Assembly (NCBI GenBank): GCA_018902385.1
Contig: JABSSW010000026.1
Span: 434,001 to 498,000 of the forward strand
DNA from: Physcia stellaris
Lineage: Eukaryota; Ascomycota; Lecanoromycetes; Caliciales; Physciaceae
Length of the DNA stretch: 64,000 nucleotides
Direction: 5' to 3'
Both the position numbers and the translations under genes were made by a program. This document shows positions 22,099 to 49,228 of the stretch, piece by piece (within the stretch, counting starts at the first letter, position 1; each line of letters opens with the position of its first letter). Under the pieces are notes generated by a model. That model was not told where the DNA came from, did not search any database, and was given only the letters and a program-made list of their open reading frames with translations.

Positions 22099-22491
22099 AT
22101 GCCCCCACTCGCCACCGTCCAACCCGAGCTTCACGCCCTCCTGGCAGAAACAGCGCAGGAGATCCACAACGCGAGGATTGCGGCCGAGACGTTTGGGCAG
22201 GAAATGCAGGCTTTTGCTGCAGAGGCGCAGGAGCTGGATCTGCTGGGTCAGGTCCAGCTGGAGGAGTGTGAGAGGGAGTTGGAGGCGTTGAGGGGGTGGG
22301 AGATGAGGTTGGGGGAGAGGAATCAGCGGACTGGAAGTGAAAGGCGGGAGGAGAGGAAGGTGAAGGGGAAGGCAGGGGAGGCGAGCGCGGAGAGGGATGA
22401 GGGGGATGGGAAGGGGGGGGGGAAGGGGAGGATAAGGACAAGGTGTGGAGGCAAGCGAAAACTTCGAGGGGTGTGCCTAATCCGCCGCTAA
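22099..22491 (+). CDS. Coiled-coil array protein, candidate member (member 1)
   Basis: Open frame of 130 codons from ATG 22099. The first 80 residues are strongly helical and charged (PELHALLAETAQEIHNARIAAETFGQEMQAF ... LEECERELEALRGWEMRLGE, shown in parts). EIHNARIAAE fits the family signature of the array to the right, though weakly. The tail is basic and Gly-rich over a G-rich DNA run and may be read past the true end. Unlike most members, no short first exon was found. It could be a diverged member or unrelated. Confidence 0.45.
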   Translation: MPPLATVQPELHALLAETAQEIHNARIAAETFGQEMQAFAAEAQELDLLGQVQLEECERELEALRGWEMRLGERNQRTGSERREERKVKGKAGEASAERDEGDGKGGGKGRIRTRCGGKRKLRGVCLIRR

Positions 22492-23307
22492 GGGGGTACC
22501 ACCACTCTTCTAACCCTGAAATTGAGTTACTTAATCCTTGGCACATTATTGCTCCCTCGTGTCGTACATTCGCAGCACTGCCTCAGTGCCTACCGCATTG
22601 ACACTGCTCCTAAAGCTTCGAATATTTTACTCTGCGTCGGTCAGTAGATCGCCCCGACCGAGCTGTCCATGCAGTGAAATTCTGGCTTTGGGCAACAAGG
22701 CTCAGCTTGGGAGCTTGGCGATGTGGCTGGCTGGTAACCCGCTTCCTACCTTACGCAAGCAGCTTCATCGGGTACACCTTGCGAAAATCCCATAGGATGC
22801 AGGACTGTCGATGACCAAAAGTCGCCTAGGCCATCTCCTGCAGCATGTATCTTATGATGGGACTACGTATTTAGAGGGTAAATGTCGCTGCTAGCTCCAT
22901 GGGTAAGCAGAATCCGTGATCTCCTTGAGTGGCCAACTTTCTTCAAAAGCTTCGCAAAGGAGTCGTGGTTTCAGGATTCTCGGAGATGCATCAAGGAAGC
23001 CGCACCAACGCACGGTCTTGAGTTGAACCGAACCACCATGTCTCGCGACGTTTTTCTCATGGGGATGCTGCTTTTATTGGTTTCTCGCAAGGTACCTCTG
23101 TGTCTGGACGAGATCTGCACCGCCAAGCTATGGAAAAAAGACCCTGAACGATTCAACCTCCTGTCAAGCCATCTAAAATTTCAGTGGTACATGACGACGC
23201 AGTAGTATTGAGCTTTTTACTTAGTTTCCTATAAAGTAACCGGGCAATCTGCTCAAAATGGGTTTTTTTCTCATAGCAAGTACTAGCCCTGTCACTCAAT
23301 TCAAACA
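22492..23307. other. Intergenic
   Basis: No supported gene. A 107-codon open frame at 22882-23205 has no family resemblance. The right end is the promoter of the DUF2306-type gene. Confidence 0.35.
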
Positions 23308-24474
23308 ATGGCAGCTCCAAAGACACCCAATGCCTTCGTCAATGTCGTTCGGAAGATCTACCATCCTATCGGATTCAAAAAGGGCTACAATTTCACACTT
23401 TGTGAGTCATGTCGTTCCCCTAAGAGACACTTCGCTCATTGTGTATCTCTCAGGGTTCATATTCGCTGGAGCTCTCTTTGGTTTCGTACTCGCCCGACTG
23501 CAGTACCTTTCTATAGATGGCAAATTCAAAGCTGGTTCATCACCAGGAGAATGGTATTGGCTACGCAGCGGCTTCAGAAAAGTCGGCATTACTCTTCATC
23601 TTGCCACTATACTACCCGCTGGGCTCCTCGTCGTTCTTCAGGTGAGCTGTTGCATGAGTTCATTCTACCGGTAGTAGAGGATCCTAATGGCGTTCCCTCC
23701 CAGTTCATCCCGATCATTCGTTACAAGGCTTTGATATTCCACCGCATCAACGGCTACGTGATCATTCCACTGCTTTTGCTATCTCACGTTGGCGCCATAA
23801 TGGTAGCCCGTCACTCTTTTGGCGGCGAGTTTGAGACCCAGGTCTTAGTAGGCCTACTCGTCATCATGACAACTTCCGGAATCTTCTTAGCATACTACAA
23901 CATCAAACGACTTCAGATCGATCAGCATCGCGCGTGGATGATACGGACTTGGTTCTACGCCGGCTCAATCATCACGTTACGCATCATCATGATACTCAGC
24001 AGCCTAATCGTGACCAAGACCGGTGGCTACTACCGCGCCATGTCCTGCGATGAGATTAAATTCATCCTTGGCAACCAGAATCAATTCGAAGCGAGCTACC
24101 CGCAATGCTCTGCCGTCAACGGTACCATTGACGGCTATATCGCTTTACCAGCAACCTTCAACACGGATGCCGCCAGGATTGGTAACACCCTTGGAATGTG
24201 TTTTGGCACAGCTGGCTGGCTTGCGCTCGCCATGCACGCTGTCGGTGTAGAAATCTACCTCCGACTGACGCCGCGCGAAAACGAGAGGCTTCGTACCGTC
24301 AGCTATCAACGTCAGCTGGAGGCTGGTTTCAATCATCCTGGTAGCGCCGGCATTACGTCTGATCGGTGGGGTGATGCGGATACGTGGCGACCACCGAATG
24401 AGAAGCCTCTTCAAAGCGATGGAGAGGAACTTTCGGAACGAGGGAAGGACGTCAACCGAACCACCATGATTTGA
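23308..24474 (+). CDS. DUF2306-type multi-pass membrane protein
   Basis: Three exons, 23308-23401, 23454-23641, 23704-24474; 350 aa with all joins in frame (GTGAGT ... CTCAG; GTGAGC ... CCCAG). Several membrane helices are visible: FIFAGALFGFVLARL, VGITLHLATILPAGLLVVL, YVIIPLLLLSHVGAIMV, VLVGLLVIMTTSGIFLAYY, IITLRIIMILSSLIV and LGMCFGTAGWLALAMHAV. HRINGYVIIPLLLLSH and QIDQHRAWMIRTW match the pattern I know from fungal DUF2306 proteins, whose conserved His residues sit at helix ends. The function is unknown; a haem- or metal-linked role has been suggested for related four-helix proteins but nothing here proves it. Confidence 0.85.
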   Translation: MAAPKTPNAFVNVVRKIYHPIGFKKGYNFTLCESCRSPKRHFAHCVSLRVHIRWSSLWFRTRPTAVPFYRWQIQSWFITRRMVLATQRLQKSRHYSSSCHYTTRWAPRRSSGELLHEFILPVVEDPNGVPSQFIPIIRYKALIFHRINGYVIIPLLLLSHVGAIMVARHSFGGEFETQVLVGLLVIMTTSGIFLAYYNIKRLQIDQHRAWMIRTWFYAGSIITLRIIMILSSLIVTKTGGYYRAMSCDEIKFILGNQNQFEASYPQCSAVNGTIDGYIALPATFNTDAARIGNTLGMCFGTAGWLALAMHAVGVEIYLRLTPRENERLRTVSYQRQLEAGFNHPGSAGITSDRWGDADTWRPPNEKPLQSDGEELSERGKDVNRTTMI

Positions 24475-25079
24475 CAGTGGAGCATCTTCAAGATTGTGGA
24501 TTTCAGGACATTAAACTCCTTCCTGATTTCCTGCAGAAAGACCTGGAGAAGGCTCGAGGGTGTATTTGCAGCCACTACAATCTATGGAATTGGGGTCGAG
24601 GGCGTTTTGCTTGCAGCCAGTACGTCTTGGAACCTCCAATGACGAGCTTCTGCGGAGACTCACTTCGGGCTGGGAGAACCAGTCGGCGATGATTTTGTTG
24701 GAGTTCTTTTGATGACCCATGCGACCATAAGACGGCATGGGGTGGCGGATGTCAGATCGAGCTAAGGACGATTGGAGCGATGCGTAGCTGGGGTTGAGCT
24801 TTTGAAGGGGGTTTGGCGCGGGTTGGTGGATGGATAATAGAGGATAGGGGTTGGGATCTGGTGATGTTTATCACCTGATAGAGGTGATGTCACAGTTGTC
24901 GACAACCATTCTATTTGTATCTCCCGAATTCACTTTGTAGAGGTGAGACTCAATGTCTCTCGTGGTTGAAATCGCATCGGATTCCCATTCCTGCTTTTAT
25001 TCTAACCCGAGACATTCACTACTTTCTGTTCCTGAAGACTTCATCGATTCTACCTCACCAGAGCCTGACCAACTTGATC
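24475..25079. other. Intergenic
   Basis: No supported gene. The right end (about 24960-25079) is CT-rich and is the probable promoter and leader of the first clear coiled-coil array gene. Confidence 0.4.
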
Positions 25080-25488
25080 ATGCCAAGATCAGAGTCGTAC
25101 TCAGAGGGAAATGAGGTGATCAGTTGACATCCAACGTTTCCTACACCCTTCTCTGACTTTCCCACAGATCTCGCTCGAGCGGCTTTTCAGACACGATATC
25201 GATATAGCACGTATAAACCTCTATCTCGCCAAACAAAAACATTCCAGAAACCAGGCGCATAGGGTACTAGAGCGTGAAATCTATGAGATTCGCCATAGGA
25301 AGGAAGCATCGTATGATCTCCATCGAGCGACAATGATGAAGCGATATGATGAGAGTAGAAGTCGGATGGAGGCAGATGATATTGAAGCGAAACACAAGAT
25401 TCTGGATCGTTGTCTGCATCTAAATGAGATGACGAAGAAACTGACGAATCAAATAGAAGTAGAATTGGGGTGTAGAGCTTGGAATTGA
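25080..25488 (+). CDS. Coiled-coil array protein (member 2)
   Basis: Two exons, 25080-25115 (12 codons) and 25168-25488; 118 aa. The intron is GT-AG (GTGATC ... CCACAG), phase 0. The second exon opens with the family signature RHDIDIARINLYLAKQK and then runs as an almost continuous charged helix (EIYEIRHRKEASYDL, MEADDIEAKHKIL, LNEMTKKLTNQIEVE). There is no signal peptide, membrane segment or catalytic motif. Its tail (KILDRCLHLNEMTKK) is recognisable in the relic at 37.4 kb. No described family recognised. Confidence 0.72.
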
Positions 25489-25677
25489 GAACTTTCTTTT
25501 CAAGTGATGAAGATGAGGTGTTGATAACTTCGACACACTTCACTTTGTGTCATGCAGAACGTGTGCCCACTGCGCAAGTTTCGGTCTTTTCACCAATACG
25601 TATTCCCAGATCATATCAGTCATCAAGGGTGTTCGTTCTTCTTCTCGTCAAGCATCAACAGCCGGAGGTTCGAGACG

Positions 25678-26108
25678 ATGTCGACATCTAGTCTGTCCAA
25701 TGTAAGTTTCATCAAGTTCTCACATCCTCAGAAATCCGTAGTACTAATTTTACTTCGAAGATCAAGATTGAAGGCCTTCAAAAGGCCCACCACAACCTAG
25801 AAACTCTACGCATCACCTCTCACTGTGGTAACGAGCAGAGGGTTGCCTACTATCGCGAACTTAACGAAAGCTTCAATCGCCACGCGGATCAACTTGTTGC
25901 TGAGAAAGGGAAGCTGAATGGAGATGCAATCGCGTATCGGAAGGATTTTGAGCGAGTACTTATGGCAGAAGAGAAACGACACCAAAGTATCATTGAGGCT
26001 GAGATGGAAGGGATGTATTATCTCGAAACTCTAGTCAGCAGATTGAAGAAGGTGCTGGAGTTGGAGACGACAGAAGCGTCAATCGACCAGAAACGCCAGA
26101 GAAGTTGA
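25678..26108 (+). CDS. Coiled-coil array protein (member 3)
   Basis: Two exons, 25678-25701 (exactly 24 nt, MSTSSLSN) and 25761-26108; 123 aa; phase-0 intron with GTAAGT donor and CTAAT branch. The signature is HHNLETLRITSHCGNEQ, a diverged form with Leu-Arg-Ile. The rest is coiled-coil-like (YYRELNESFNRHADQL, AEEKRHQSIIEAEMEG, VSRLKKVLELETTE). It starts 190 bases after the stop of member 2 on the same strand. Confidence 0.7.
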
Positions 26109-26699
26109 GCGAGTAGCTACCCCGAATGTGGTAAAGGTGGCAGAGCGAAGGCAGACCAGGATCTGGAAACTTGAAATGGTAGTTGCTCATGGCTCTGATG
26201 ACTCATAGGTCTCACGGTTCTCACTAACGGTGACCTATTTGAACAGTCTTCTCAACATTTACACTTCAGTGGTACTCATTCCCCTATTGAAACCCCAAGA
26301 TCAATAGATTGAGGTAAACCCCTTATCAATAGGAAATAGAATTGGAGCATCACATCACTGCTTATCAAATTTTCCCGCTTCATCTAATCTCTGATTTCTG
26401 TATCAGTTCATTCGTTTCACAAAAGGATCAGACAAACCCTCCCTATCGGACCTCACGAAATCAAGGTAACATGTGCCGATCAACGGATATCTCATTTTTC
26501 GGATATTCTAGGGAACGGGCAATAAGACTGCCTACAGACAGAACATCAGCTCTAAGAGCACTCCAAGATGAACCAGCTGATGCTCTGGAAAGCTCTTTAC
26601 AGATACTTTGCTGATTGGTTCTATGGAAAAGTACCTTCTATGAAGTGCCTTTATCGCTTCCATACTATTCTACCTATTGTTTTGGGCCCTGCTGACCCC
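26109..26699. other. Intergenic part of the array
   Basis: No supported gene; 3' flank of member 3 followed by unassigned sequence. Confidence 0.35.
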
Positions 26700-27010
26700 A
26701 CAGGACTACCTAGCCGTCAGTTGGCCGCCTCAAAGCGCCAACAAACTCCCACTATCTAGGCGATAGCTTCAGAGAGCGGAGAGAGGGAGAAAATCCAACC
26801 TTCGAAGTCTGCGAAGGAGTAAAAGCCGAGGAACAAGAGAAGCAGGAGAAGTCTGCCATATATCTCTATCCCATCCCATACAAATTGCCGCTTTTCGAGA
26901 ATGGCGTACCCAGCTCACCCGAATCCCAATGCCATATCTGCCACCAAAATGCCACAGAATTGGCCATCTACTCCACCGAAGCCTCTAGTCATTCTCCCCA
27001 CTCATGCTAG
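26700..27010 (+). pseudogene. Probable coding relic of unknown family
   Basis: A frame open from about 26709 to the TAG at 27008 reads like real protein: DSFRERREGENPTFEVCEG, then AEEQEKQEKSAIYLYPIPYK, then ESQCHICHQNATELAIY with a CxxC pair. The upstream part continues better in a neighbouring frame (DYLAVSWPPQSANKLPL), directly after an acceptor-like CTGACCCCACAG. A one-base shift near 26750 would be needed to join them, and no start or promoter is clear. Listed as a relic; the family is not recognised. Confidence 0.3.
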
Positions 27011-27287
27011 GCCGAGCAAAGAAGACCCATCAAGAGCTCTGCTGGGCAGTAGCATCGCCGGCTAATTCGTCCCTACGTATGCGGCCGGGCTATGGAGCTG
27101 ATGTGTATGAGCATATGAAAACAACTTTTCAGAAGGATGTGAGCGGACACGAAAAGTTCTGAAGGACGAACAAGGAGACTCAACGTAAGAGGTAGAAGAT
27201 CTCAGCATCCTCTCTAATTGTTGCTTTTCCCTGCGCCAACGTTACAGTCCAGCGAATTGAGCACAACGACTCAAACCATGATACCCA

Positions 27288-27693
27288 TCAAGATTGTTCC
27301 GCAGAATCGATATTTCCCTCCTTGCCCTTTCTTATTTCTCGCTCCTTTTCCTCCTTCAACTCTCGCAAACAATCTTCCATGTAACGAATTCTCTCTACCA
27401 GCTTTCTTTCCTTCCTCTCCCCTTCGCGGAAATACGTGCAAGCTCGATCGTGAACCCTCCGTAGCTCCTCTTGAGCGGCTGCATCCAGTTCCTGCAATTG
27501 GCGAAGTACATTTATTTCGTATTCCATCGCGCGTTGGTTTTGAGTATTCAGCTTGATGCGAAAGCAATCGAGTGTATGACGGAGTTGAGGGAGATGTCGT
27601 TCAGCTCTCTCGATCAGCTGGAGGAGAGATATGTTAGTGGATTCGGAGAGCAAGGATAGCGGGACTTGCCTCGTCGGTTGAGCAGACTGCCAT
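27288..27693 (-). CDS. Coiled-coil array protein, minus strand (member 4)
   Basis: Two exons, 27693-27670 (24 nt, MAVCSTDE) and 27617-27288; 117 aa. The intron uses a GC donor (GAG, then GCAAGT, the favoured GC-donor context) and a CTCCAG acceptor, phase 0. The signature is diverged: RHTLDCFRIKLNTQNQ. The remainder is an extended charged coiled coil (YEINVLRQLQELDAAAQEEL, RKLVERIRYMEDCLRELKEE). It is the only member on the minus strand. Confidence 0.7.
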
Positions 27694-28110
27694 GATTGAT
27701 TTGCTGGGTTTGAGGACTGCGAGCGAGGGGTTTGGATTAATGAGAGACGGGAGTTCAATGACGAGAGAAGAGACAAGGAATCTTGAGAAGGATAAAAGAG
27801 AAAATGTTTCAAGCGAAAGTGTTGAATACTAGATCTATCTGCGCATATTTATTCACAGTCGTGACACAGAAAATTCAAAGATTCTGACGCGTTATCCGGA
27901 AAAGGTTTGGACATTTCTGATTCATCACTTCGATTACTCAAACTCAAAACGGGTATCTCGTGGTATCAATCAAGAATGTGACATCAACATGATATTACAT
28001 CTCCAAGTCCTTGCCTGGTAATCGTTCTTGATTACCTTTCCCAATATCTCATCAATTAAACAGACGTCCCATCAATCTCGATCTAACAAGCGCCTAAACA
28101 AGTCCCAGCA
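27694..28110. other. Divergent spacer between array members 4 and 5
   Basis: A 417-base head-to-head spacer carrying both promoters; AT-rich, nothing else recognised. Confidence 0.4.
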
Positions 28111-28450
28111 ATGGAATTCCCCACCCGCAACCAAGCAAGTCCCCCTCCCTCCCCCTCCCTCCACTTGACTAACCCCCCCACTCCCCCAGATGATCTCCTC
28201 AACTCAACAATCCATCCTCAAAGCCTCCCACGAGCTCGACCTAACCCGCATCAAGATCCATCTCCTGAAGCAAAAAGCACTTCACTACAGACATCAAGAC
28301 AGCCAGCTCAGGGGTTTATTACCAGAAAACAGCTTTAGGGCCATTATGAAGTGGAAAATGATGCAGATTCGGGAGCAGGAGGAGTACGTGTTGGTTTTGA
28401 AGAAGGGGATTGAGGATTTGAGGAGGGGGTTGAGGGTTCTAGAGGATTAG
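28111..28450 (+). CDS. Coiled-coil array protein (member 5)
   Basis: Two exons, 28111-28134 (24 nt, MEFPTRNQ) and 28190-28450; 94 aa, the shortest intact member. Again a GC donor in optimal context (CAA, then GCAAGT) with acceptor CCCCCAG, phase 0; the nearby GT would break the frame. The intron holds a pure pyrimidine tract. The signature is SHELDLTRIKIHLLKQK, close to consensus, followed by a helix (KWKMMQIREQEEYVLVLKKG). Confidence 0.68.
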
Positions 28451-29407
28451 AGGGTGGGGATGAGAGTTATGGGGGTGCAGACCTCTGAGGAGAGGAGAAG
28501 AGGGTGGGAGTAATGTATTTGGTTCAGCAGCTTACTCGATACTGTTTCCCTGATTCTGAAAGATAGAGATCGTAGACGTGATGTGCGATACTTAGACTTC
28601 TACTATCTCTTTGGAGCGTCATATCGATCCATAATCTCCAGCCAATGTCATCTTCATCAGCCCACAGAGCATGCTCCCTAAGTATCTCTCATCCTTCTCT
28701 CTCCCAACGAATCATGGCGCTTCCCAGATAGCTCTCCACGCGTCTCTTCCAATCACCTATCCGAATCTTATGATCGAGCAAACAAAGCAATCCAAACACC
28801 GCTCCAGTCAGCACGCTGGATGCTAGATTTCGCAAGGCCTCTTTACTTTAAAACACGGGGATAATCGGGCGACTGAAGGGATATTGAAGGTATATCGGTG
28901 GCGGAAACAGGTCGAGCGGTAGGTGAACTTGGCGAGTCGTATATTTGGGATGTTTTGTGATGTGAGGAGTTGAGGAGGGAGATTGAGAAGGGCGGAGGAG
29001 AATGGTAGTGGAGGAGATTGAGAGGGTGGATGTATACATGCACTTTTGTGAATGAGGAAAAAAAAGGGGTGAGGTGAGCAGCGAGCCTGACGTAGGGTTG
29101 ATTCCTTTGGATATCTAATGTCATGGTGTCCGCAATGTCGATGACACTTTTCATTCCTATCTGGGCGACCAATCTTTCAACAATTTTTCTACTCAGTGTT
29201 TAATAAACCAACCGCACATGTCAAACAATAGTGGTCATACTGAATATGACACAGAATTAAAAGTGAATAACATTGCTGTCATCACATGAATTATCTGGGA
29301 GGTAGATATCTCTCTTCTCTCTTGCTTGCTCTTTATGAACTCTACCATCTCAGTCGGTGCTTCATTTCCCGATCAGTTGATCAACATCTGGGATATCAGC
29401 ATCGGGA
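28451..29407. other. Gap in the array, 0.96 kb
   Basis: No intact gene. A minus-strand frame at about 28705-28845 reads plausibly (LTGAVFGLLCLLDHKIRIGD, then WKRRVESYLGSAMIRWE) but is bounded by stops and may be an exon of a decayed gene. Confidence 0.3.
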
Positions 29408-29926
29408 ATGTCATCCAGACGATCAGGGCAACATATGTCTGCAGCTCAATCACACTTCAGACTTCAGAAAATCAGCGATCTCAAAATCCTACTCAACAGC
29501 GCTTGTGAAAAGGAATCCGCTGCACTCACAAATTACGTGGAGGCAAAGCTGCTCGGAGAAAAGTACAAAGCCGACGCAGCGCGGATGCAACGGCAGGATC
29601 GGCGCAAGATCTGGTCGAAGGAAAAGCAAACTATGATGATTGACTCCGCGAGCATGAGGATGCGACAGACCTGGTTGGGCTGTGCAGAAGAGGTTGAGAG
29701 CATCCGAGATCGCATCTCAAGATGGGAGGAGGCACTTGAGGAGGCCGAAGGTAGCTATCGAGAGAGACGGCATGACTTGGATCTTGCACGCATTGATCAG
29801 TCTCTCGCGAAAATAGGTGGTAATCTAGATGTAGTGAGACTGAGTGAGATGAACTTGGCTATATGCAAGGTGCAGGCGGACCTTGCGAAGAAGACGCTTG
29901 TTGACTTGAAGATGCGCTGGCTTTGA
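29408..29926 (+). CDS. Coiled-coil array protein, long form (member 6)
   Basis: Single open frame of 172 aa. ATG 29408 (MSSRRSGQH) or ATG 29435 could start it. No short first exon is obvious, unlike its neighbours. Helical throughout, with the signature late in the protein: RRHDLDLARIDQSLAKIGG at about residues 128-146. Upstream are heptad-like stretches (EEVESIRDRISRWEEALEEA). Confidence 0.65.
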   Translation: MSSRRSGQHMSAAQSHFRLQKISDLKILLNSACEKESAALTNYVEAKLLGEKYKADAARMQRQDRRKIWSKEKQTMMIDSASMRMRQTWLGCAEEVESIRDRISRWEEALEEAEGSYRERRHDLDLARIDQSLAKIGGNLDVVRLSEMNLAICKVQADLAKKTLVDLKMRWL

Positions 29927-30131
29927 GCTTGCGTAATGCAGGATGATTTGGATAGAAGTCGAGGCATGCTACAAGATTGTGTTATCTCGGATTGAATAAT
30001 GCAAGAAGTGGTGCAGTGATGAGAGCAATGACACTACTCAACTCCTTCTTCTTATAACCTCTCTATTGAGCCTCTCAATTCCCAATATTTTCTCCTCATA
30101 TGCAAAGAGCTTTTGGAAAGTCATCACCGAA

Positions 30132-30826
30132 ATGTCTCAAAACTTTAGAGTACCATCAATCAAAGGTAAGTGAGAGGCCCTTAGAAACAATGTTTCGATG
30201 TTAGTTCTAAGATTGCGCAAGCCGAGCTTGATCAGCGCTTATATAAGGCCGGCGGAGAGGTAGACTTAGCACTCATCGCTCTCCAGCAGGCTCAACAGAG
30301 AGCAATGGCTCACGCCGCAGGTTGCGACCGGCCACACCAAATTACTCACTGTTCCTTAATCTCCGACCCCGAACTTGTTGAAAAACTTCGAAAAATAACC
30401 GAACATGAGATGAGCGCCCAGATAGCCATGCATGATCGATTGGTGCTGTCTAAGGAGAGGAGTCTTAACTCTGCCATCGAGCATTATTCCGAGACAGTTG
30501 CGAGAAACGCACGGATAATGGAAGCCATGGTACGCTATAACAACGACAGTCACGATGTAGAGATTGCTCGGATCCAACTGCACTCTGTTAGATCACGGGT
30601 ACAAGACAATTGGCAGAAGATTATGGATGCTCTAATGAGAGATGAGGAACAGATTGCAGCTGGGGATCAGAATTCGGTGGCTCGAAGGGATCGTAGACTT
30701 CAAATTTTGAGACAATTTCTGCCGCTTCTCGAAAGGAAGAACGCTAAGATTTACCGAAGGCTGAAACGATTTGAGGAGAGGGCGGAGATATCTAGGGAAT
30801 ATTTTGATAGAATCAGAAGAGGTTGA
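30132..30826 (+). CDS. Coiled-coil array protein, long form (member 7)
   Basis: Two exons, 30132-30165 (34 nt, MSQNFRVPSIK) and 30222-30826; 212 aa; phase-1 intron, donor GTAAGT, branch TTCTAAG, acceptor GCGCAAG. Two signature-like helices are present: GGEVDLALIALQQAQQR near residue 23 and SHDVEIARIQLHSVRSR near residue 100. This suggests that the long form arose by internal duplication. The C-terminus is basic and helical (LLERKNAKIYRRLKRFEERA). Confidence 0.72.
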
Positions 30827-31042
30827 CATGAGATTTTGTTGGAGGGAGGGAGGCAGAGGTTTCCAGCTGCTAAAGAGATGTGCTTATGTAATCAGCCTTG
30901 TGGGCTTGGCAAAATATTTCAGCTCCAGATGGCTACGCTTATGTCCAGCACAAGCAGCATTTGGAGATCTTCATCTCTTAACTGCTAGCATGACATGAAC
31001 AGAACACTCGGGTTCGATGTCACCGATTGGGAGTAGCTAGCT
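30827..31042. other. Spacer after member 7
   Basis: Short spacer, no gene seen. Confidence 0.3.
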
Positions 31043-31168
31043 GCCCTCAACAGTGAGGACTGCTACAAATTATTGAGACACGAATTTGATATTCATCCAC
31101 TCGCCCTGGACAAAATTGAGTGCCGAAATCTAATGGGACCACGGTTGGCCGGGGTAGAGAAAATTTAG
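31043..31168 (+). pseudogene. Decayed fragment of the coiled-coil array family
   Basis: An open frame (ALNSEDCYKLLRHEFDI and on to a TAG at 31166-31168) contains LLRHEFDIHPLALDKIECR, which lines up with LFRHDIDIARINLYLAKQK of member 2 over the signature, with the A-R-I core lost. It sits in the gap between members 7 and 8, where a further copy would be expected. Short and diverged, so uncertain. Confidence 0.35.
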
Positions 31169-31791
31169 TTTCGAAGTCCAATTCGTATGCATATCACTGT
31201 TCGAGCAACCTTGATATCATAAAGATCATCTCATCCCCACACTCATCCCTATCCGAGATGAGCGATCTATCCGGATATTTTGAGACTTAATCGAAACTCG
31301 AGGATGTGGAACCGCGAATTGAGGCTCCTCTCTGTTTGGGCTGTCCAGATCTGGTCATGATCGCCCCGGTAATGGCTGCAGCATGGCGTATGAAGTGCTC
31401 TCGATCTCTGAACACTGGTTTCCGAGTCGAAAGAGTCGAGGATCCCGAGGAAAGTGTTGAATACTTTGCCGAGTCTCTGTTCAAAACAGATGAATAGAAA
31501 ACAGGTGACGACTTGTGATGAGATCTATGGTCCTTGAGCAGGTGAATTAATTCACGAAAAGTGATAGACTTAGACTCGTTCATGAGTCACAAAGAGTGTA
31601 TGATCAAACACATCGTGTAATTTATACCGATCACGAAGTGAAGAGTTTGATGATTGATGTCTCATGAAAGTATTTAAACAGTCTACTGTTGCTTTTACCT
31701 TACTTTATTCCTAATATTTCCCCCCTGGGTATGCTACTACAATTACTTCTTAGACTATCATCTGCAGCTTCCAAAGCAAATTCATTGAAAC
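31169..31791. other. Spacer between the relic and member 8
   Basis: About 620 bases. Two overlapping opposite-strand open frames at 31287-31583 show no family resemblance. The right end is the CT-rich leader of member 8. Confidence 0.3.
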
Positions 31792-32495
31792 ATGTCTCAT
31801 CAATATTTCCCCGCTGGATCAGCAAGGAGTAAGTCTCGAAGCCAAATTCGCTCTCTGGCTACATCGCTAACATGATCGTAGTCAAGCTCGCACAACAAAT
31901 CGATCAGACCGACCAAGCCTTGACTGTGCTTAGGAAAGGCATAGATGAAGCCTATAGGGACTGGTCCACCCGCCAAACCGAACTTGATAATGTGATAGGG
32001 TCCTCAAATCCACTTGACACGGATGCGGTACAAAGGAAGATAAAGATGAGCCAAGAGCAGCAACATAAGGTTCAATTGATTACTCAACAAACTAAACTCT
32101 GTATCCAAGAGTCTCGGAGACTCAGATCTCTACGGGAGAGGTTGGATATCATGGATCGCGAGCAGAATCACAAACGTCTAGTGCACAAATGGGAGATTGC
32201 TCGTATTGACCTGCAAGTCTTGCAAATTGAGTCTGAGAGGAACTTTGTCAAGGATTCAAGTCGTGTGCGATTGATAGAGGAGATGGAGATCACGTCTGAC
32301 TTTGGAACTGAAGACAAAGTCAAGCTTTTGGTCAGAGCAAATGCCCGGATGGAACGTCATCACACATTCTATCAGCGGAGGATCATTTCACAAGACGACT
32401 ATGTGATGGATTTGGAGATCAGAGTCCAGAGTTACGCTAGAAACCTGAAAGACCGGAAAAGGGCTTGGGAGGAGAGCAACGTCATCGATAATTGA
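31792..32495 (+). CDS. Coiled-coil array protein, long form (member 8)
   Basis: Two exons, 31792-31828 (37 nt, MSHQYFPAGSAR) and 31882-32495; 216 aa; phase-1 GT-AG intron (GTAAGT ... CGCTAAC ... CGTAG). An N-terminal helix (QQIDQTDQALTVLRKGIDEA) is followed by a central signature HKWEIARIDLQVLQIES at about residue 115 and a C-terminal helix (EIRVQSYARNLKDRKRAWEE). No signal peptide or enzyme motif. Confidence 0.74.
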
Positions 32496-32956
32496 TGCCA
32501 AATCGATAGCTACATAGTAGGGCCTTGCGTGGAGCATTTGACGGCAAGTTCCGGATTAAACCGGATTTAAACCGTTCAAAAGGTTTTAAACCGCAGAAAC
32601 ACCGTTTACACTTAGCTAAACCGTGGAATTGCGGTTCCGCGAAGGCATCAAAATCCCCGTATGTACAGTATGTTAGGACGAATATGTGTTGGGCATTGAG
32701 AGTAAAGTCAACCGCTATAAAGTACATGCGATCCAACACGGCTGTGATATTCAGAGTCACGGCTAAAGTGTTGCCAAATTTGGAACAGAGAGTGTCGGCT
32801 GTCAGGAAACACAGAAGTGAAATGCGTTTGAGAACACTCCTTTTACGATCTATAATAATCTCACAGACTCCATCTATACCACATGCAATGATACTTAGTC
32901 TGCCATAATACCTTTTCGAATCTCCAAGCTGCATTCTCCCAGACTCTGAAACAAAC
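32496..32956. other. Spacer with recurring TAAACCG motif
   Basis: A 461-base gap. TAAACCG or a close variant recurs about five times between 32550 and 32630, next to a short inverted CCGTGGAATTGCGGTTCCGCG-like patch. No gene recognised. Confidence 0.35.
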
Positions 32957-33662
32957 ATGACAGCCCCTCCAAGAAACAAGGATCTCACACGCTGTAAGTA
33001 AAGAATCTAGCATCATGTACGACAGCAGTGCTGATACTTGACTAGCCGACCTCGAGCAGCAGCTCATCGATGCCCGCCACGACTTAGACTCAGCTCGTGA
33101 TGCTCTACATCAAGAGGAAGAACGCTATCGGAGTGGCAAGGGGTTTATCTACCTTAAGAAGCAATATCCAACCGAATATGAGACTGAATCTTCGATAATC
33201 AGCAAACCTTTGAAAGATTTCGACGTTATTCATGACCCGCTATGGCACAAGAAGCTACGATTTCGCTACAAGTTCGACCATATGAGAGGGATTGAGCGGG
33301 CGATAGAATTCAGGAGCACATATGTCAAGAAAGCACAAAACCGCGTCAATGAGAGGGCTCACTGCCTCGAAGTGGCGCGGATCGATCTCTATGATGTCAA
33401 AGTGAAACGGCAGAGGTTTTTGGAGCAGGCGACCAGAGTGCTGCACAACTACGAAACCGCACTCGCAGCAGGGGATGAAACATATCAGGCGCGGATAGAC
33501 CATCAGGAAGCTGTTATTAAGCATCACATTCTGGTGTATGCTCGACGGATCGCCTGCAGGGAGGTGGCAGTGAAAAGAAACGAAGACATGATGGAGATCG
33601 ATAAGGAGCACCTTCGCTATTGGGGATATTCTACGAGACGGGAGCTTGCCATCAGGCTCTGA
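32957..33662 (+). CDS. Coiled-coil array protein, long form (member 9)
   Basis: Two exons, 32957-32993 (37 nt, MTAPPRNKDLTR) and 33046-33662; 217 aa; phase-1 intron (GTAAGT ... CTTGACTAG). Two signature-like units: RHDLDSARDALHQEEE near residue 22 and AHCLEVARIDLYDVKVK near residue 118. The same two-unit layout as member 7. It is rich in Arg, Lys and Glu with no hydrophobic segment; a helical, probably self-associating protein by inference. Confidence 0.74.
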
Positions 33663-33868
33663 GAATAATTTAGATGATCTGACAGATCTCGTGATTCTTG
33701 TCCAGCAGAATGCCAACCCTAATGCTTAGTTGTGTTGCAATACTTATTTCTATCAACCCTTTCCTTATCTTGCGATTCTCATTCTCTTAGGTTCAGCCTT
33801 TTGTAACCTACCTTGTCCGCCAGGCGCCATGAGTACAAGAACAGATGACTGGTGATTAGCCAACAACA

Positions 33869-34581
33869 ATGTCGGGTCAGCCGTTTGTCATAAATACAAC
33901 AATGGGTGAGCCTTTCAACCTGCTCGTCAGATAGAGGTTAACACAATCAAAGAAGAGGTCAGGCGGCAAGTTCAGGACGCTCATCAACGCGTGACCACGA
34001 CACGTGAACAGCTCGCAAAAGTAGCGGCTGCCAACGGCGCTCAATCCCTCGAGATCCTCGCACTAGATCCCAAGTTAGAGATCGTTTTTAGCCACGGACG
34101 GAAATTAAAACACTACGGCAGGACACAGTCCGAGGAAGAACTACAGCTTGAACAGACTTTCCTCGAAGAGTGTCAAGTTCTTGAGACGCTACGGCACAGC
34201 CTGGACATCTTCGAAAAGGAGGAAGACTACAAGAAAGCCAGTCACGATCTATGTATTGCGCGTACTGAGCTGCATCTCGAGAGATCGCGATGGGAAGAAT
34301 TGCTTGAAGATCAGACTCGCACATTGATGGAGCTTCAGGGACGCATAGATGCTGGCGAGAAGGGTGAAAGCCTTTTCGTTGCTCGCGCTTTACACAGTGA
34401 CCTTATAAAGCGTACGCGTATCGTCTCTCGGGCGGGAGTCATCGTGCTGAAGGAACGGGTGGGATTCCATGTGGAGCAATGTGCGACAAAGAAGAAGCTC
34501 ATTGATTCGACGAGAAAAGAATGGATGAAGAAGGGAGCTGAGAAATATAAAGGTGGATGGAGGGTGCTGAGAGTCTGTTGA
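33869..34581 (+). CDS. Coiled-coil array protein, long form (member 10)
   Basis: Two exons, 33869-33905 (37 nt, MSGQPFVINTTM) and 33953-34581; 221 aa. The phase-1 intron starts GTGAGC; an ATCAAAG acceptor gives a 47-base intron, while the GATAG acceptor would make it only 29 bases, so the first is preferred. An N-terminal helix (RRQVQDAHQRVTTTREQLAK) is followed by the signature SHDLCIARTELHLERSR at about residue 107, with Thr in place of Ile. Confidence 0.72.
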
Positions 34582-34929
34582 CGGGACTGATAGAATATCC
34601 TTTGATTATGAGTGTTCGCACGGAATCGAATGACTGCAGATGTGAAGATGCGGGAGATTTTGATGATCGAATTCAAGTTGTGCTTGTTGACACTTCGAAT
34701 ATCACTGTATCTAAGAACAAGAAATTAAAATACCTTGCAACGAAGTGATTTCCGACACTATGTGAAAGCTTAAATCACTAAGCGATTTAATATCTGATTG
34801 CATTGATAATTTTATTTTCCTTATTTCCCATTCAACTTCTACGTTCTTTGAACTTTTTTAGAGTCTCAATCTCTCATCAAGATCAAGGGAACATCAGCAA
34901 CACAACAAGCTCATCGTAACCTTTCAATC
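34582..34929. other. Spacer between members 10 and 11
   Basis: AT-rich 348-base spacer with a pyrimidine-rich leader just before member 11. No gene seen. Confidence 0.4.
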
Positions 34930-35360
34930 ATGCCTCGGCTTGATTCTTTAAAGGTATGCGTTTTCAAACCATGCACTCATTATCAACATCAAATTAATCT
35001 AAACGAGCCCAGGCTGAGTACGAATCCACCTACAAGAGAAGCTGTCATGAATTAGACGAGGCACGCATCAGCTCTCATCTTGCAAAATTGAGATGTCGAG
35101 AGGAAGTCGATAAGATGGCTAGACACTATTATCAGCAAAGTCTGACTGTCAGAAATGAGGACGATAAAGGAGAAGTTGATAACAAGCGCAAGGAAGCCCA
35201 ATTTGCAAATACAATATTATACTTTAGAGGGTATATTGGACGCCTTGATGAGAGAATTTTTAGAGCTAAAGCGGACGTCGAGATATCCAAAGGACTTTTG
35301 GAGGATTTGAAAGAGAGAGAACAACGCAACGAAGAGGATGTTATCAACAACTATTATTGA
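34930..35360 (+). CDS. Coiled-coil array protein (member 11)
   Basis: Two exons, 34930-34953 (24 nt, MPRLDSLK) and 35013-35360; 123 aa; phase-0 GT-AG intron (GTATGC ... TAATCTAAAC ... CCCAG). The signature CHELDEARISSHLAKLR is followed by charged helices (EEVDKMARHYYQQSL, RLDERIFRAKADVEISKG, LLEDLKEREQRNEED). Confidence 0.73.
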
Positions 35361-35593
35361 GGATCATGGTCTTTGATTTAGAGGTCTGGAATCAAAATGG
35401 AGCACTATTAACAAGGTAATTCGGTTGTATCATAGTTCTGTCTCAATTCATTGTTCTGGGATCACCATCTTTCGAGCATTGCACCATTCTTTGCCTCTTC
35501 CTCAAGTCTTACATACCCCGGAACCTTCAACGTTAGATCTATCCGAAGATTCACGTCCCTAGATCTAGATACGTTTTCAATGTTCCCATCAAG

Positions 35594-35989
35594 GCCGAGG
35601 CTCAAGTCTACTGCAAAGATGCTCTTTATTGTCTCGACATCGTCCGTATCAATGGGTATGCTAGGCGGGAGCAAGTCCAGGATAATTTCGAGGAAATAGT
35701 CCAACGAGCCTGCCGTCAACTCCCTAACCTTAATTCTAAGGAGGATGTCCACCACCATCGCCTAGAAATGCTGAAATCCAAATTCAAGAGGGAGGGATCC
35801 TGCTTTGTGGCGCTATGTTTCATTGCTAAGCACATTGTGAAGAGCACTGGGAAACATGGCAACTGCGAGGATGGAGCGATGCAGGTTAACACTGTCGAAG
35901 AGGGTGATAGCTTGGGATATGAGACACAATCTTGTGAACCCCCTCATCTCATCTCTCAAGTTCATCGTTCATTGGGTGTTCACGCATAG
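35594..35989 (+). pseudogene. Coiled-coil array member, first exon missing (member 12)
   Basis: From an acceptor-like ATCAAG at 35593 the frame AEAQVYCKDALYCLDIVRINGYARREQ is clearly a family second exon, matching the layout of member 11 (AEYESTYKRSCHELDEARI). It continues with EEIVQRACRQLPNLNSKE and runs to a TAG at 35987-35989. No ATG-containing first exon with a matching donor was found upstream, and the last 30 residues look less family-like. Probably a decayed or wrongly bounded copy. Confidence 0.5.
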
Positions 35990-36179
35990 GGCCGTAAATG
36001 AATCAGTGTTACAGGTAGATGATACCAACCGAGTCATCGCCACTCAAGATGGGAACACTGTTTTGAGGTCAGAACACCAATTCCATCTTTATAAATTGTC
36101 ACTCAACCATTGCCTTTCTTAAATCCTGCTCCTCATCACACGTCCGCAAATTGAAGAACTTCAAGCATTGTATCAGGCC

Positions 36180-36617
36180 ATGTCGTTCGCATCAGCTACG
36201 AATGTAAGTCCTCCAGTGTGACAAATTCCCCTCTCCTCACCCATCAATTGACCAATCCTCCAGGCGATCGATAAAGCACACTTGAGCCAAGCCGGCCACG
36301 AAGTCGATCTCGCCCGGATAGGATTCCACATCGCCAAACAAAATGCCGCAGAATCCATCAGGGAAGCCCCTCGCCAACTCCGAGACTGTGATGCCAAGAT
36401 CAAAGCCGGTCATGAGCAGTTTGTGCCAATCAAAGAGGAGCTGATGAAGGACATAAAGGAGTGCATTGTTGCTCAGAGGGGGGTGATCCATGCTAGGAAG
36501 CTTTTGGTGATGTCGACTGAGTCTGCGTATGAGATGATCAAAGCCCGGATCGAGATGGCGAGGGTTGAGTGTCAGATTCTGCAGGAGCTGGATTCATTCG
36601 TGGACCATAGTTGGTAG
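36180..36617 (+). CDS. Coiled-coil array protein (member 13)
   Basis: Two exons, 36180-36203 (24 nt, MSFASATN) and 36264-36617; 125 aa; phase-0 intron (GTAAGT ... TTGACC ... CTCCAG). The signature is the clearest of all: GHEVDLARIGFHIAKQN, followed by AKIKAGHEQFVPIKEELMKD and further helix up to a second ARIEMARVECQ stretch. No membrane or secretion signal. Confidence 0.75.
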
Positions 36618-37169
36618 GGTGCTAGGGAGGTGATGGCAGTACAACAACAATACGTTTGCTGGAGCGTCTTGACTGTCAAGGACTCGAGGCTTTTGGGGTC
36701 TGGTTAGGGAGGGAAGACAGCGTGTGCATAAGACATACAGTCATTGAGTGAGCAGATAAAAACCAGCGGAATGGGGCGTACCTGTCATGTTCTGTTCCAA
36801 GTTGACCGCTTCCGTATATAGCAAGCCACATCGCCTCACGCTCCTACTCCACTGTCTCTTGTAAGAGGAGAGCCCGCGACAAAGAGAACACGGTTCCTAT
36901 TTTGCTCGAACATCGTTCTACGGAGTAAAGCGGGATAAGCGATGTTAACACTTCACAAGAACGAAGGAAGTGAAGAAGCGATCTCGCGCGTATCTTCTTG
37001 CGCTAGGTTTCTGATGCCAATCAGGAAATGATGTGTAAATCAACGAATTTCAAATGTCACCATGTCAAAAACTCACTACGTCAAGCCATTGAAAACCAAA
37101 ATCTCTGATTCTCTATTATATTCTACTAGACCAAGAATTTCACATACTATTTTGAAGATAAAACCTCCT
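36618..37169. other. Spacer before the terminal relic
   Basis: A 552-base gap, nothing recognised apart from a CT-poor AT-rich stretch near 37070-37160. Confidence 0.3.
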
Positions 37170-37432
37170 TTACTTCCCCGATAAGTATCGCCAAACAGAG
37201 CGAGCACAGCATATCAAACCCACCCAACATCATATCGAGATAGCACGGATCAATCTACTAGCCGCAAACCTGGACGCACTTACAGCACAAAAACAATCCA
37301 ATATAAGGGTGTTTTGAGTTGATTGGATCTCGCACATGGGCGAACGCTCTAGGTATTGGACCATGAAAACAGCTCATCATGTGTCGACTTTTAGAAGTGA
37401 ACGAGAACACTAAGAGGAGGAAGGTTGATTGA
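37170..37432 (+). pseudogene. Decayed coiled-coil array member (member 14)
   Basis: An open frame ending in TGA at 37317 carries an intact signature, HHIEIARINLLAANLDAL, preceded by YRQTERAQHIKPTQ, and stops soon after. In another frame just downstream, CRLLEVNENTKRRKV (to a TGA at 37430-37432) matches the tail of member 2 (DRCLHLNEMTKKLTN). The two halves therefore look like one former gene broken by a frameshift and stop; the start exon was not found. Confidence 0.6.
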
Positions 37433-39954: not shown

Positions 39955-42067
39955 ATGGAGCAAGTCATCAGCTCATGCAATGCGGCGGCAAATTATCCCC
40001 AAAATCTCATCCAATCAAGTATCTACGAGTTCGTCGCGAACTCATATGTCGAAAAGCTCGATGAACACCAGCGAGATCTTTTCGGTGCTGATGAAAGTGC
40101 CGGCCTGGATTTCTGGGAGTTGAGTGATACCTCAAGAGGTACGTCGCCATGCACGATCATGAGAACGATTGCTGAGAAACATGCAGCCTTCTGGTTTTAT
40201 CATATTTGCAGCTTTACTGCACTAAAAGAGCACCTTGGGTTCGAGAGACCTCTCCAACAAAGAGATCCGAAATGCAGATTTATGTTAGTGTCCCCATGAT
40301 GTGGTGGCTCCTGCCACTGCTTGAAAACTTTGGAAGCTGACTTTATTTTACCCAGTTTTGTTCATGCCCCACATTCTCGAGAAAGACTTTATACAACGCG
40401 GTCCATGTTCCTGCTATCTTTGACTTACCAACAAGTGATGCCGGCGTTTCTGGACTTTGTTTTCCCTTTTGGTATGCAGGCCAGGGAGCGAGACTTCAAT
40501 TTCGGTGGTTTCCGACAACAGACACGTCTGCCCGACTCAGACAATGGACTGCGCGTTCCAGAATTAGGCTGGTCTGGTCGCGATTATCAGATATGTTTTA
40601 ATCTCAAATCAGTCGAACAAGCCAGAGGGGGTGGTGAGCCATGGTCAATCCGTCAAAGTGCGATCCATCATTCATTTGACATCGAGAGTGGGAAGGCATC
40701 TTGGATGGTGGTGAAAGCTAATAAGCTGCTGCAAGAACGTGTCAAGTCAGCGACAATCTCTCGAGGTCTTCGGACCGTAGGTTCTTATGATAAATTGGAC
40801 AGAGCATTCGCATCGACACTAGCTACACATCTGATTTTCTGCGAATGGGCTGGGCAGAATTGGCGGTGGTATATCAAGTTTTTAGAAGATAATCTTCAGG
40901 ATATCACACAGCACATGCTATCCCCGGTAGTCAGAACTCCAACGAGTCCAAAATTAGACCTTACTACTTTACCACCAGAAAACATCACATTGCAGGACTG
41001 TCATAGCTCACCGGAAACACTGGAACACAAGCGGCAACCTCAATCACCTCAATCCGAGAGCCCAGAAATTGCGGGATTTCACTTCCTAGCAAGTGAAACT
41101 AAATATCCACCTCCACCTCCACCACCTGATTCCAGTATCCCAGAATTTGCGGGATTTCATTCTCTAGCAGATGAGGTCAAAGTCCCACCTCAATCCCCAT
41201 ACGATCTCCGTCGCTTATCATCTGCGGGAAAGGAAACAAAATTTTCTATCACCGACCTACAGCGGATACAGGGCATCGAGGGAAAAGCTAACGCGGCGAA
41301 GCTGATCTTGAAAACAAACATATCAGTCTTCTTAGACCTACAAAATTTTTACAAGACTGTTTCAATCTTTCAAGGCTGGCCTAGTGAATTGTCTAAGCAG
41401 AGTCACGGGGACATGCTTCGATTTGAGCAAACTCTTTCTAGTATGGAGAATGACATGCGGCTACAGATATCTAGGGTGGAGCTGCTACTACAACTGATCA
41501 CGGACCGAAAAACTCTCGTGAGTCGAATTAGTCCTTGGACAGATAGCAAGCTAAAATCGTTTAGCTCTATGGCATACTGGACAGCCAAAGGGTAGAAGCA
41601 AACAAAACATCGACTCACAACATGCAACAGTTGACAGCAAACATGCATGACGTTGCCTTGAAGACGAAACAAGAAACCGTCTCCATGAGGATAATCACCG
41701 TTGTCGCGCTCATATTCCTTCCCGGAACTTTCACATCAGTAGGTTTCATCTGAGGTGCCATTTCTGTGTCTCCCTACCTGGCTGACTTCGAGCGTAGACG
41801 CTTATGAGCACAGACATGGTTCAATTTGCTAAAGCAAATGCTGGACCTTTTGGAAGTCTCTTTTCTGTCGGAGCCCTTGGGCTGTATCTTCTTATTAGCT
41901 TGCCTCTCGTCATTATCACCCTGTTAGGATGGTACCTATTTTACCGATGGGAAATTCGGCACCAAGATCGAGCTGCAAGTACAGACAAACCTAGCCTACG
42001 GCGCCGAGGCTGGGTTTCAGCACGCAAATTTATAAATGGCTCGTATTCATCCATCCTTCCAAAATAG
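39955..42067 (+). CDS. CorA-like membrane protein of fungal type
   Basis: Four exons, 39955-40283, 40356-41517, 41565-41738, 41798-42067; 644 aa with every join in frame. The N-terminal domain includes LGFERPLQQRDPKCRFIFVH and APHSRERLYTTRSMFL, then YQQVMPAFLDFVFPFG, a pattern typical of fungal proteins annotated as CorA-like. A proline-rich linker (PPPPPPPDSS) precedes a coiled coil ending KTKQETVSMRIITVVALIFL and two membrane helices (IITVVALIFLPGTFTSTLM; GLYLLISLPLVIITLLGWYL). The GMN loop that defines true CorA magnesium channels is absent. The role is unknown; such proteins are numerous and variable in Leotiomycetes. Confidence 0.85.
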
Positions 42068-43386: not shown

Positions 43387-43942
43387 ATTGCATGGTCACT
43401 TTTGCACTCCTCCTCGCCAATACAGCTGACGTTTGCGCGGCGAGTGGTCTCCGCGGAGTGGTACGGGGGTGTACACCAAATGAGTTGGCCAGGGTTATTT
43501 AGGGGACTCGATGGCTCGTCGCCGTTGGTAATATGCGATCTGCCTTCCATCAGACAGCGGCATCGTGCACGATGATGCACTTATCCATCCTCCACCTTTT
43601 CGTATTGCGATTTCTGCACCTCTGACTGGTAATTTGTGTGTGGACGAATGCCCCTCTGTTACACCGATTGATTCTGGCTTTGGGAGCGGACCGAGGGGCT
43701 GTGCGGGACCCACCGCTGCTCGCCCATCACATTTGTCCTGTGGTTTGTCGGCATGCTTGGGCGGACTTGATTGAAGAGCGCCTTGGATTTACTAAGGCTG
43801 CATCGATGGACTCATCGATGGATTCATAGCAGTTGAAGTATGTATAAAGATGCTCGACCCAAGTTATTACTCTGCTCCCCACCAGTCCCTGCTTCTATGC
43901 GTCGCTTCCTTGCAGATCTCGCCCAGAAGGTAGCCCCCACCA
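43387..43942. other. Spacer between MITE and kinase-vWA gene
   Basis: Contains the promoter and leader of the kinase-vWA gene at the right (CT-rich from 43860). No other gene supported. Confidence 0.4.
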
Positions 43943-46900: not shown

Positions 46901-47227
46901 AACAGCAAATTGGAATACAGTTTATTCAATTCGGGGATAAAGCAGAGGAAACGAGTCGATTAAAAGACCTGGATAGGTTGCGAGAGAGTGGCTATGTTGA
47001 CATGTACGTCTTCCAGAACCTGCTATTCTCATCGCACTTCCCTCCTCGGCTGACCTTAGAGCAGGGACGTGGTCGACACCGAGCTTGCCAGTGGCGATGT
47101 CTTCAAAATGCTTCTTGGCGCTATCAGCCCTTGGTTTGACGACGACCCTCCTCTTCCTGAAGACTTCTCTAGCTTTAACCTGAGGTCACCACAAGCCACA
47201 GGAAAGCGCTTCTTGGCACCAACCTAA
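43943..47227 (+). pseudogene. Protein kinase-vWA fusion protein, interrupted by one in-frame TAG
   Basis: Six exons: 43943-44518, 44587-44978, 45028-45197, 45258-46414, 46471-47003, 47065-47227, giving a 996-codon frame (including the TAG) before the final stop. N-terminal helical region (1-190); kinase domain with TFVLKCYSG (ATP Lys), HIIGFFGSFKLGEVHNVLLE, WHHDIKPSNILI (catalytic Asp), ADLGLSHF (DLG for DFG) and YGAPECLR (APE). A Ser/Pro-rich linker follows, then a C-terminal vWA domain with the metal site AFLIDNSTSM (DxSxS) and LSLYVFTDAVWQPG. The codon at 44704-44706 is TAG, between the ATP-Lys strand and helix C (YYNNE, stop, RALKRV). All splice sites and all other codons are intact, so this is a very recent nonsense change, a sequence error, or a truncated allele. 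Kinase-vWA proteins are widespread but uncharacterised in fungi. Confidence 0.85.
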
Positions 47228-48788: not shown

Positions 48789-49228
48789 ATGGTATCACGC
48801 TGGGAAAGAGTGGAGCTTGGATCACGGTCGGCCGAGAAGCTCAAGGTATGTAGAATAGGTCTGAAAAAGCCCCGATTTTCAGGCTCGCTAATAACGGCCA
48901 GAGTATGATTGAAGAACGGTACAACAGGTTCCAGCATAGGTTGACAATGGGGCGCATTGAGCTCCACATTGCAAAGACGGAGGCTGCCGAAGTATACGAA
49001 GTTTTCGGTCAAAGGCTCCATTACTACGAAACTAGGGTTCGAGCGGGAGACAAGGAATCTGTCGACAGGAGGAACCGTGTCAAATCGGCCATGGAATGGG
49101 CCGTGTCATCTGGCAGAGATACGGTTGATTACTGGGAGCGTATGGTGGAACGTAACGTTTTGGAGTTGAAGCAGATTAAACAGCAGCGTGAGATGATAGA
49201 GAAGGGCTTTGCGCCAGCAAGTCGCTAA
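48789..49228 (+). CDS. Coiled-coil array protein, outlying copy (member 15)
   Basis: Two exons, 48789-48845 (57 nt) and 48902-49228; 127 aa; phase-0 intron (GTATGT ... GCTAATAAC ... GCCAG). The signature QHRLTMGRIELHIAKTE has Gly for the usual Ala. It is followed by YYETRVRAGDKESVDRRNRV, similar in tone to YETALAAGDETYQARIDH of member 9 and AGDQNSVARRDRR of member 7. This A-G-D-x-x-S/Y-V/x-x-R patch is a second shared feature. It lies 11 kb from the rest of the array. Confidence 0.72.

What the first reader, a model, noticed from the sequence alone, without database searches (positions are those of the whole stretch)
22099..37432. Tandem array of a highly diverged small coiled-coil gene family
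Eleven intact or near-intact genes (members 2-11 and 13), one possible member at the left edge, one exon-less copy and two relics lie within about 15 kb, nearly all on one strand, with another member at 48.8 kb. They share a signature visible by eye: RHDIDIARINLYLAKQK, SHELDLTRIKIHLLKQK, RRHDLDLARIDQSLAKIGG, SHDVEIARIQLHSVRSR, HKWEIARIDLQVLQIES, AHCLEVARIDLYDVKVK, CHELDEARISSHLAKLR, GHEVDLARIGFHIAKQN. Outside it the sequences are so different that ordinary pairwise search might miss the relation. No signal peptide, membrane helix or known domain is present. Rapid birth-and-death in a tandem array is typical of genes in conflict or self/non-self roles, but that is inference.
Basis: partly seen in the sequence, partly recalled or inferred. 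Interest (0 to 1): 0.88.

Follow-up and report, generated by a model that had tools for sequence, protein, structure and literature searches.

The report
Lichen fungus's diverged helical-hairpin gene array
A lichen-forming fungus carries a row of about a dozen small, strongly diverged genes that appear to encode one shape, a long helix folded back on itself; the family is unnamed and seems old and kept in relatives rather than freshly churning.

Summary
The array is real. The window lies in the lichen-forming ascomycete Physcia stellaris. I find 11 intact or near-intact members at 25.1-36.6 kb, one at 48.8 kb, two relics, and a second locus on contig C3 with two more. Leave-one-out profiles recover 12 of 14 units at E<1e-3; 13 of 14 genes share a short first exon and one small intron. 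The left-edge candidate (22099) fails (E 42). AlphaFold2 gives a two-helix hairpin (pLDDT 95.6) whose turn is a recurrent AG[DEH] motif; long members look like two hairpins in series. Most conserved is a polar ladder on helix 1, its Arg in 14 of 14. No Pfam match reaches cut-off. Homologues came only from P. stellaris and unnamed sources; there, 13 proteins each best match one of six members at 70-90% identity, whereas linkable paralogues share about 22-42%. So, where sampled, the array is old and stable, against rapid birth-and-death. Best reading: lineage-restricted, cytosolic, oligomerising hairpin scaffolds; biological role unknown.

The parts
25080..25488 (+). member, short, 118 aa; exon 1 25080-25115, exon 2 25168-25488; unusual GTGATC donor, possibly degenerate
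   Evidence: (leave-one-out E 3.1e-4)
25678..26108 (+). member, short, 123 aa; exon 1 25678-25701 (24 nt), exon 2 25761-26108; weakest by sequence
   Evidence: E 0.084, not passed
27288..27693 (-). member, short, 117 aa, the only minus-strand copy; exon 1 27693-27670 (24 nt), exon 2 27617-27288
   Evidence: E 0.036; E 8.3e-4
28111..28450 (+). member, short, 94 aa; exon 1 28111-28134 (24 nt), exon 2 28190-28450
   Evidence: E 2.9e-5
29408..29926 (+). member, 172 aa, no intron in the model, second unit cut short after the signature
   Evidence: E 1.4e-4
30100..30826 (+). member, long, 226 aa; exon 1 30100-30165, exon 2 30212-30826; start codon uncertain
   Evidence: E 1.7e-9; best match of P0003, P0006, P0009
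31792..32495 (+). member, long, 216 aa; exon 1 31792-31828 (37 nt), exon 2 31882-32495; identical to database protein P0002, G7Y79_00026g059420
   Evidence: E 0.54 (not passed), z 9.4 with 33869; best match of P0004, P0007
32957..33662 (+). member, long, 217 aa; exon 1 32957-32993 (37 nt), exon 2 33046-33662
   Evidence: (E 1.5e-11)
33869..34581 (+). member, long, 221 aa; exon 1 33869-33905 (37 nt), exon 2 33953-34581
   Evidence: E 2.5e-10
34930..35360 (+). member, short, 123 aa; exon 1 34930-34953 (24 nt), exon 2 35013-35360
   Evidence: E 4.7e-8; best match of P0005, P0010, P0014
35537..35986 (+). relic: open frame with the signature region, no exon 1 or start found
   Evidence: E 6.7e-5
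36180..36617 (+). member, short, 125 aa; exon 1 36180-36203 (24 nt), exon 2 36264-36617; exon 2 structure predicted
   Evidence: pLDDT 95.6; E 5.3e-13; best match of fragment P0011
37162..37314 (+). relic: open frame of 51 codons with the signature, then a stop
   Evidence: E 6.7e-5
48789..49228 (+). outlying member, 127 aa; exon 1 48789-48845, exon 2 48902-49228; identical to database protein P0001, G7Y79_00026g059480
   Evidence: (E 4.7e-10); best match of P0008

Best explanation
A lineage-restricted family of small, highly charged, probably cytosolic proteins. Each unit is an antiparallel two-helix coiled-coil hairpin: helix 1 of about 46 residues, a tight turn at AG[DEH], helix 2 of about 64 residues. 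Short genes hold one unit. The long genes (about 220 aa) appear to hold two, helix 2 of the first running into helix 1 of the second. The mechanism I think most likely: the hairpins associate with themselves or each other (two hairpins making a four-helix bundle) and act as structural adaptors. The paralogues have diverged in the interface that picks the partner, while the polar ladder on helix 1 (H-6, D/E-3, R0, H/Y+4, K/R+7, with a frequent Glu at +72 on helix 2) fixes hairpin register or a shared docking site. The family grew by tandem and perhaps internal duplication before the sampled lineages split, and selection has since kept it. Shown: relationship, gene structure, second locus, close relatives of six members elsewhere. 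Predicted: fold. Inferred: oligomerisation, docking, selection (no DNA of the orthologues was available), internal duplication.
For: Profiles and shuffles. Single-sequence genome searches: 5 of 9 queries find another member at E<0.05, best 1.8e-5, 2.6e-5, 2.9e-5, 6.3e-5 (also 30). Shared exon-intron plan in 13 of 14; models of three genes (31792, 48789, C3a) are letter for letter the database proteins P0002, P0001, P0012. AlphaFold2 hairpin at pLDDT 95.6 with the turn on the motif; long member modelled as helices 2-39, 46-137, 142-202 (pLDDT 78.6). Position counts R0 14 of 14, I+1 13 of 14, H-6 12 of 14, AG[DEH] at +30 to +32 in 7 of 14. Thirteen other-source proteins each closest to one member at 70-90%; their groups on long stems.
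Against: No expression data. AlphaFold2 can give confident helices for charged coiled-coil sequence (recalled), only 11 rows went in, no shuffled control was folded, and fold comparison could not be run. The long model is less certain (pTM 0.45). First halves of long members match the profile weakly or not at all: 32957 E 0.043, 30100 E 0.45, 33869 E 0.64, 29408 E 10, 31792 E 42. Oligomerisation was not modelled. Four of 9 single-member queries find no other member at E<0.05. Substitutions in orthologues are not lower at hydrophobic positions than elsewhere (Fisher p 0.39), so the constrained core gets no independent support.
Confidence: 0.5

Rival explanations
1. Recognition array: the hairpins pair in allele- or partner-specific ways and serve self/non-self or photobiont recognition, with diversification at the pairing surface.
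For: Tandem array with strong paralogue divergence; [quoted passage not shown]
Against: Members kept apart as separate orthologue groups in the six sampled; charged positions change least; no HET, NACHT or other recognition domain among Pfam matches; no signal-like start by hydropathy. Polymorphism within the species was not testable.
Confidence: 0.15
2. Ordinary structural or regulatory coiled-coil proteins of one cellular pathway (for instance trafficking or cytoskeleton subunits) that merely diverged fast; the array has no special role.
For: Small single-domain coiled coils are common and diverge easily (recalled); the C3 pair lies beside a COG5 gene.
Against: No sequence match to any such subunit below E 0.28 in the PDB or at a Pfam cut-off; such expansion would be unusual for core machinery.
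Confidence: 0.25
3. Mostly decaying duplicates: a few working genes among neutral copies.
For: Two relics, an intron-less truncated copy (29408), an odd splice donor (25080). Of 13 members contained in the queries, P. stellaris database entries came back for 3 (length limits may explain some misses).
Against: Six members have relatives at 70-90% identity elsewhere; 14 genes keep open frames; the in-frame codon score ranks first of six frames in 11 of 14 members, though it also ranks first for the rejected 22099 and only second for a training gene.
Confidence: 0.1

Closest known systems
WXG100 / ESAT-6-like bacterial proteins (features recalled; small helical hairpin named in the abstract start of PMC11217815, listing)
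   Same: About 100 aa, two-helix hairpin, small genes; assembly of hairpins into bundles is a plausible analogy
   Different: The turn carries AG[DEH] in 7 of 14 members and no WxG there; no Pfam match at cut-off; eukaryotic
Spectrin-type repeats (recalled)
   Same: About 106-aa helical unit with a helix running through from one unit to the next, as in the long-member model
   Different: Two helices per unit, not three; no Pfam spectrin match
Lineage-restricted gene sets of lichen-forming fungi (PMC9232553, passages seen)
   Same: Genus- or species-level restriction, mostly no known function
   Different: That paper stresses small secreted proteins; these show no secretion signal by hydropathy and form a tandem array. 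The word Physcia does not occur in its main text
WWC1-like helical hairpin (PF25802)
   Same: Helical hairpin; member C3a gives E 0.1
   Different: Far below the curated cut-off (13 against 27.8 bits); not a match

Membership tests
WXG100 / ESAT-6-like | WxG motif in the turn between the helices | tested here: not met
   Turn position +30 to +32 holds AG[DEH] in 7 of 14 and WxG in none of 14 (rows printed); no Pfam match at cut-off
WXG100 / ESAT-6-like | two-helix hairpin of about 100 aa | tested here: met
   a prediction for one member
Spectrin repeat | Pfam-detectable three-helix repeat | tested here: not met
Fungal heterokaryon-incompatibility (HET/HeLo) families | HET, HeLo or NLR domain | tested here: not met
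   no such match among 14 of 14 members scanned
Fungal heterokaryon-incompatibility (HET/HeLo) families | balanced polymorphism within the species | not testable with these tools
   only one isolate's genome available
Small secreted effector-like proteins | N-terminal signal peptide | tested here: not met
   highest 10-residue hydropathy in the first 35 residues is 1.08 over 14 members; no dedicated predictor was run
Lineage-restricted orphan family | no recognised domain and homologues only in close relatives | tested here: inconclusive
   No domain. Named hits are P. stellaris only; the other 13 come from sources without a species name. The search needs shared 5-residue words, so distant relatives could be missed

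The most novel reading that the evidence does not exclude
A lichen-fungal set of diverged hairpin proteins whose members combine selectively, like a code of matching coiled-coil halves, to control recognition or tissue assembly of the symbiosis, with the polar ladder as the common lock.
Probability: 0.08. Interest if true: 0.85.

Novelty: new member of a known kind. Interest (0 to 1): 0.5.

Why it matters
Lichen fungi are reported to hold many genus- or species-level genes of unknown function (PMC9232553, passages). This family is a compact test case: one predicted fold, 14 genes at two loci, relatives of six members in other sources, and conserved residues to mutate. Of 13 members contained in two database queries only 3 came back as P. 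stellaris entries, so it may be under-annotated. It also shows how a family can diverge beyond pairwise recognition while keeping its exon plan.

Tried and rejected
Left-edge member 22099: rejected by profile. Internal duplication by profile-profile comparison: hhalign gave probability 13%, E 0.0021 over 24 columns, against E 0.53 for the reversed control; suggestive only, so the claim rests on the structure model and weak domain hits. Shared upstream element: GTGATGA within 300 bp of 8 of 14 starts, where 3 of 200 dinucleotide shuffles reach that maximum; of the other eight settings tried, seven gave 14 to 199 of 200, and one (500 bp, 8-mers, a different word) gave 3 of 200. Two divergent genes share one site. 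Not claimed. Codon score: in-frame first for 11 of 14, but also for 22099, and a training gene ranked second, so it is weak. Genome hits at C29, C2, C6 and C53 are single weak matches (E 0.16-1) and are not counted as members; those at C29 and C2 were looked at, the other two not. Of the 31 signature-pattern matches outside the array, 22 were cut out as loci and scored with the profile; none passed (lowest E 0.046); 9 were not cut out. Other libraries, on the 15 rows of A5: best NCBIfam E 0.004, PHROGs E 0.0056 to an unnamed family, PADLOC none. Alignment A5 lacks 29408; that member was scanned against Pfam.
Full report
Source. A protein search returned the 48.8-kb and 31.8-kb genes as hypothetical proteins of Physcia stellaris on a contig of 594,864 bases, the length of contig C26 in which the window lies. 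The genome paper (PMC7513301; passages seen) describes an axenic ascospore culture and a scaffold N50 of 594.86 kb. The taxonomy places it in Caliciales, Lecanoromycetes.

The array. I built gene models by hand. Thirteen of 14 genes (12 in the window, 2 on contig C3) have a short first exon and one intron of 46-69 nt; 29408 has none in my model. The first exon is exactly 24 nt in six (25678, 27693, 28111, 34930, 36180, C3a) and 37 nt in three long genes (31792, 32957, 33869). Three models (31792, 48789, C3a) equal database proteins letter for letter. The intron plan was not used in the profiles, so it is separate support, although I looked for such exons when building the models.

Is it one family? 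With each unit (and its orthologues) held out, a profile of the rest recovers 12 of 14 at E<1e-3; 25678 and 31792 fail that test. In an earlier round on 12 window units, 10 of 12 passed; 25678 and the minus-strand copy failed. Of 91 pairs of full proteins, 27 have z>5 against 200 shuffles and 43 have z>3. Of nine plain genome searches with single members, five find another member at E<0.05, best 1.8e-5 for the C3 pair and 2.9e-5 for 30100 with 32957. Queries 34930 and 28111 find no other member at all.

A second locus. One search gave a weak hit on contig C3 (E 0.21). The fetched region holds two genes with the same exon plan, L036:6238-6621 and L036:7408-7904, next to a COG5 gene. Held out, they score E 1.7e-10 and 6.9e-12. 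Because the genome could not be searched by profile, further loci may exist.

Shape. AlphaFold2 on exon 2 of 36180 with 11 aligned rows gives helices 2-47 and 53-116, mean pLDDT 95.6, pTM 0.75. The turn (residues 48-52) falls on the AG[DEH] motif, which lies 30 to 32 residues after the invariant Arg in 7 of 14 members. A long member, 31792, with 8 rows gives helices 2-39, 46-137 and 142-202, pLDDT 78.6, pTM 0.45, as expected of two hairpins in series. Sequence evidence for the first unit is weak. Fold comparison was switched off, and no PDB sequence match is better than E 0.28.

What is conserved. Anchored on the Arg: R0 14 of 14, I+1 13, H-6 12, A-1 10, D or E at -3 in 10, H or Y at +4 in 11, K or R at +7 in 11, E at +72 in 7 of 12 that reach it. 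The polar positions are spaced 3-4 apart, along one face of helix 1, beside a hydrophobic stripe. I infer a polar ladder that sets register or docks a partner; contacts were not computed.

Distribution and age. Three protein searches returned three P. stellaris proteins and 13 from sources without a species name. Each of the 13 has one clear best match among the 14 members: 30100 (3), 31792 (2), 34930 (3), 48789 (1), 36180 (1), C3a (3), at 70-90% identity over 57-202 aligned residues; several are fragments. Among the 30 best-linked paralogue pairs printed, identity over the aligned part is about 22-42%. Contig lengths agree for P0003 and P0007 (83,658), P0004 and P0009 (1,639), and P0008 and P0010 (47,884), which suggests, without proving, that neighbours stay neighbours. 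In a tree of 25 rows the six groups sit on stems of 0.92-2.78 changes per column with much shorter inner branches; five of the six have starred support (31792's group has 94/87), and deep joins are unreliable because of long branches. So these paralogues are older than the split of the sampled lineages, with no sign of recent turnover or homogenisation among them. Below roughly 45% identity (my estimate) relatives could be missed, since the search needs shared five-residue words.

Known families. All 14 members were scanned against Pfam and none reaches a cut-off. On the 15 rows of A5 the best NCBIfam E is 0.004 and the best PHROGs E is 0.0056, scattered over unrelated families, with no PADLOC match. 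Nine literature searches in an open-licence library, of which I saw listings only, showed no paper on such a family; within that library only the genome paper holds the assembly accession. [quoted passage not shown]

Mechanism. Most likely the members are cytosolic hairpin modules that oligomerise, with paralogue-specific partners. This is inference from the predicted fold, high charge (29-43% K, R, E, D) and lack of other domains. The recognition reading is possible but has no direct support: separate orthologue groups are kept where sampled, and charged positions are the slowest to change (15% against 20% for hydrophobic and 23% for the rest).

Verdict. A real, apparently undescribed, lineage-restricted helical-hairpin family in a tandem array with a second locus.

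Noticed in passing
window 4914-6806: A 630-aa open frame weakly like retrotransposon Gag (Pfam E 0.09) with a motif like FGWSRCC recurring three times; possibly a domesticated or decayed element.
   Followed up: partly
window 43934-47139: Open frames that look like a protein kinase (E 0.039 for one exon) and a VWA-like domain (E 0.22), both below cut-off; probably one multi-exon gene beside the array.
   Followed up: partly
window 40300-41595: A 431-aa frame between the array and its outlier, with no Pfam match; from recall it resembles fungal CorA-like proteins.
   Followed up: partly
window 23287-24474: DUF2306 predicted membrane protein just upstream of the array (E 8.4e-15).
   Followed up: no
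L036 4361-5686 (contig C3): COG5 gene directly upstream of the second family locus.
   Followed up: no
upstream of 8 of 14 members: GTGATGA recurs within 300 bp of the start; statistically borderline.
   Followed up: partly
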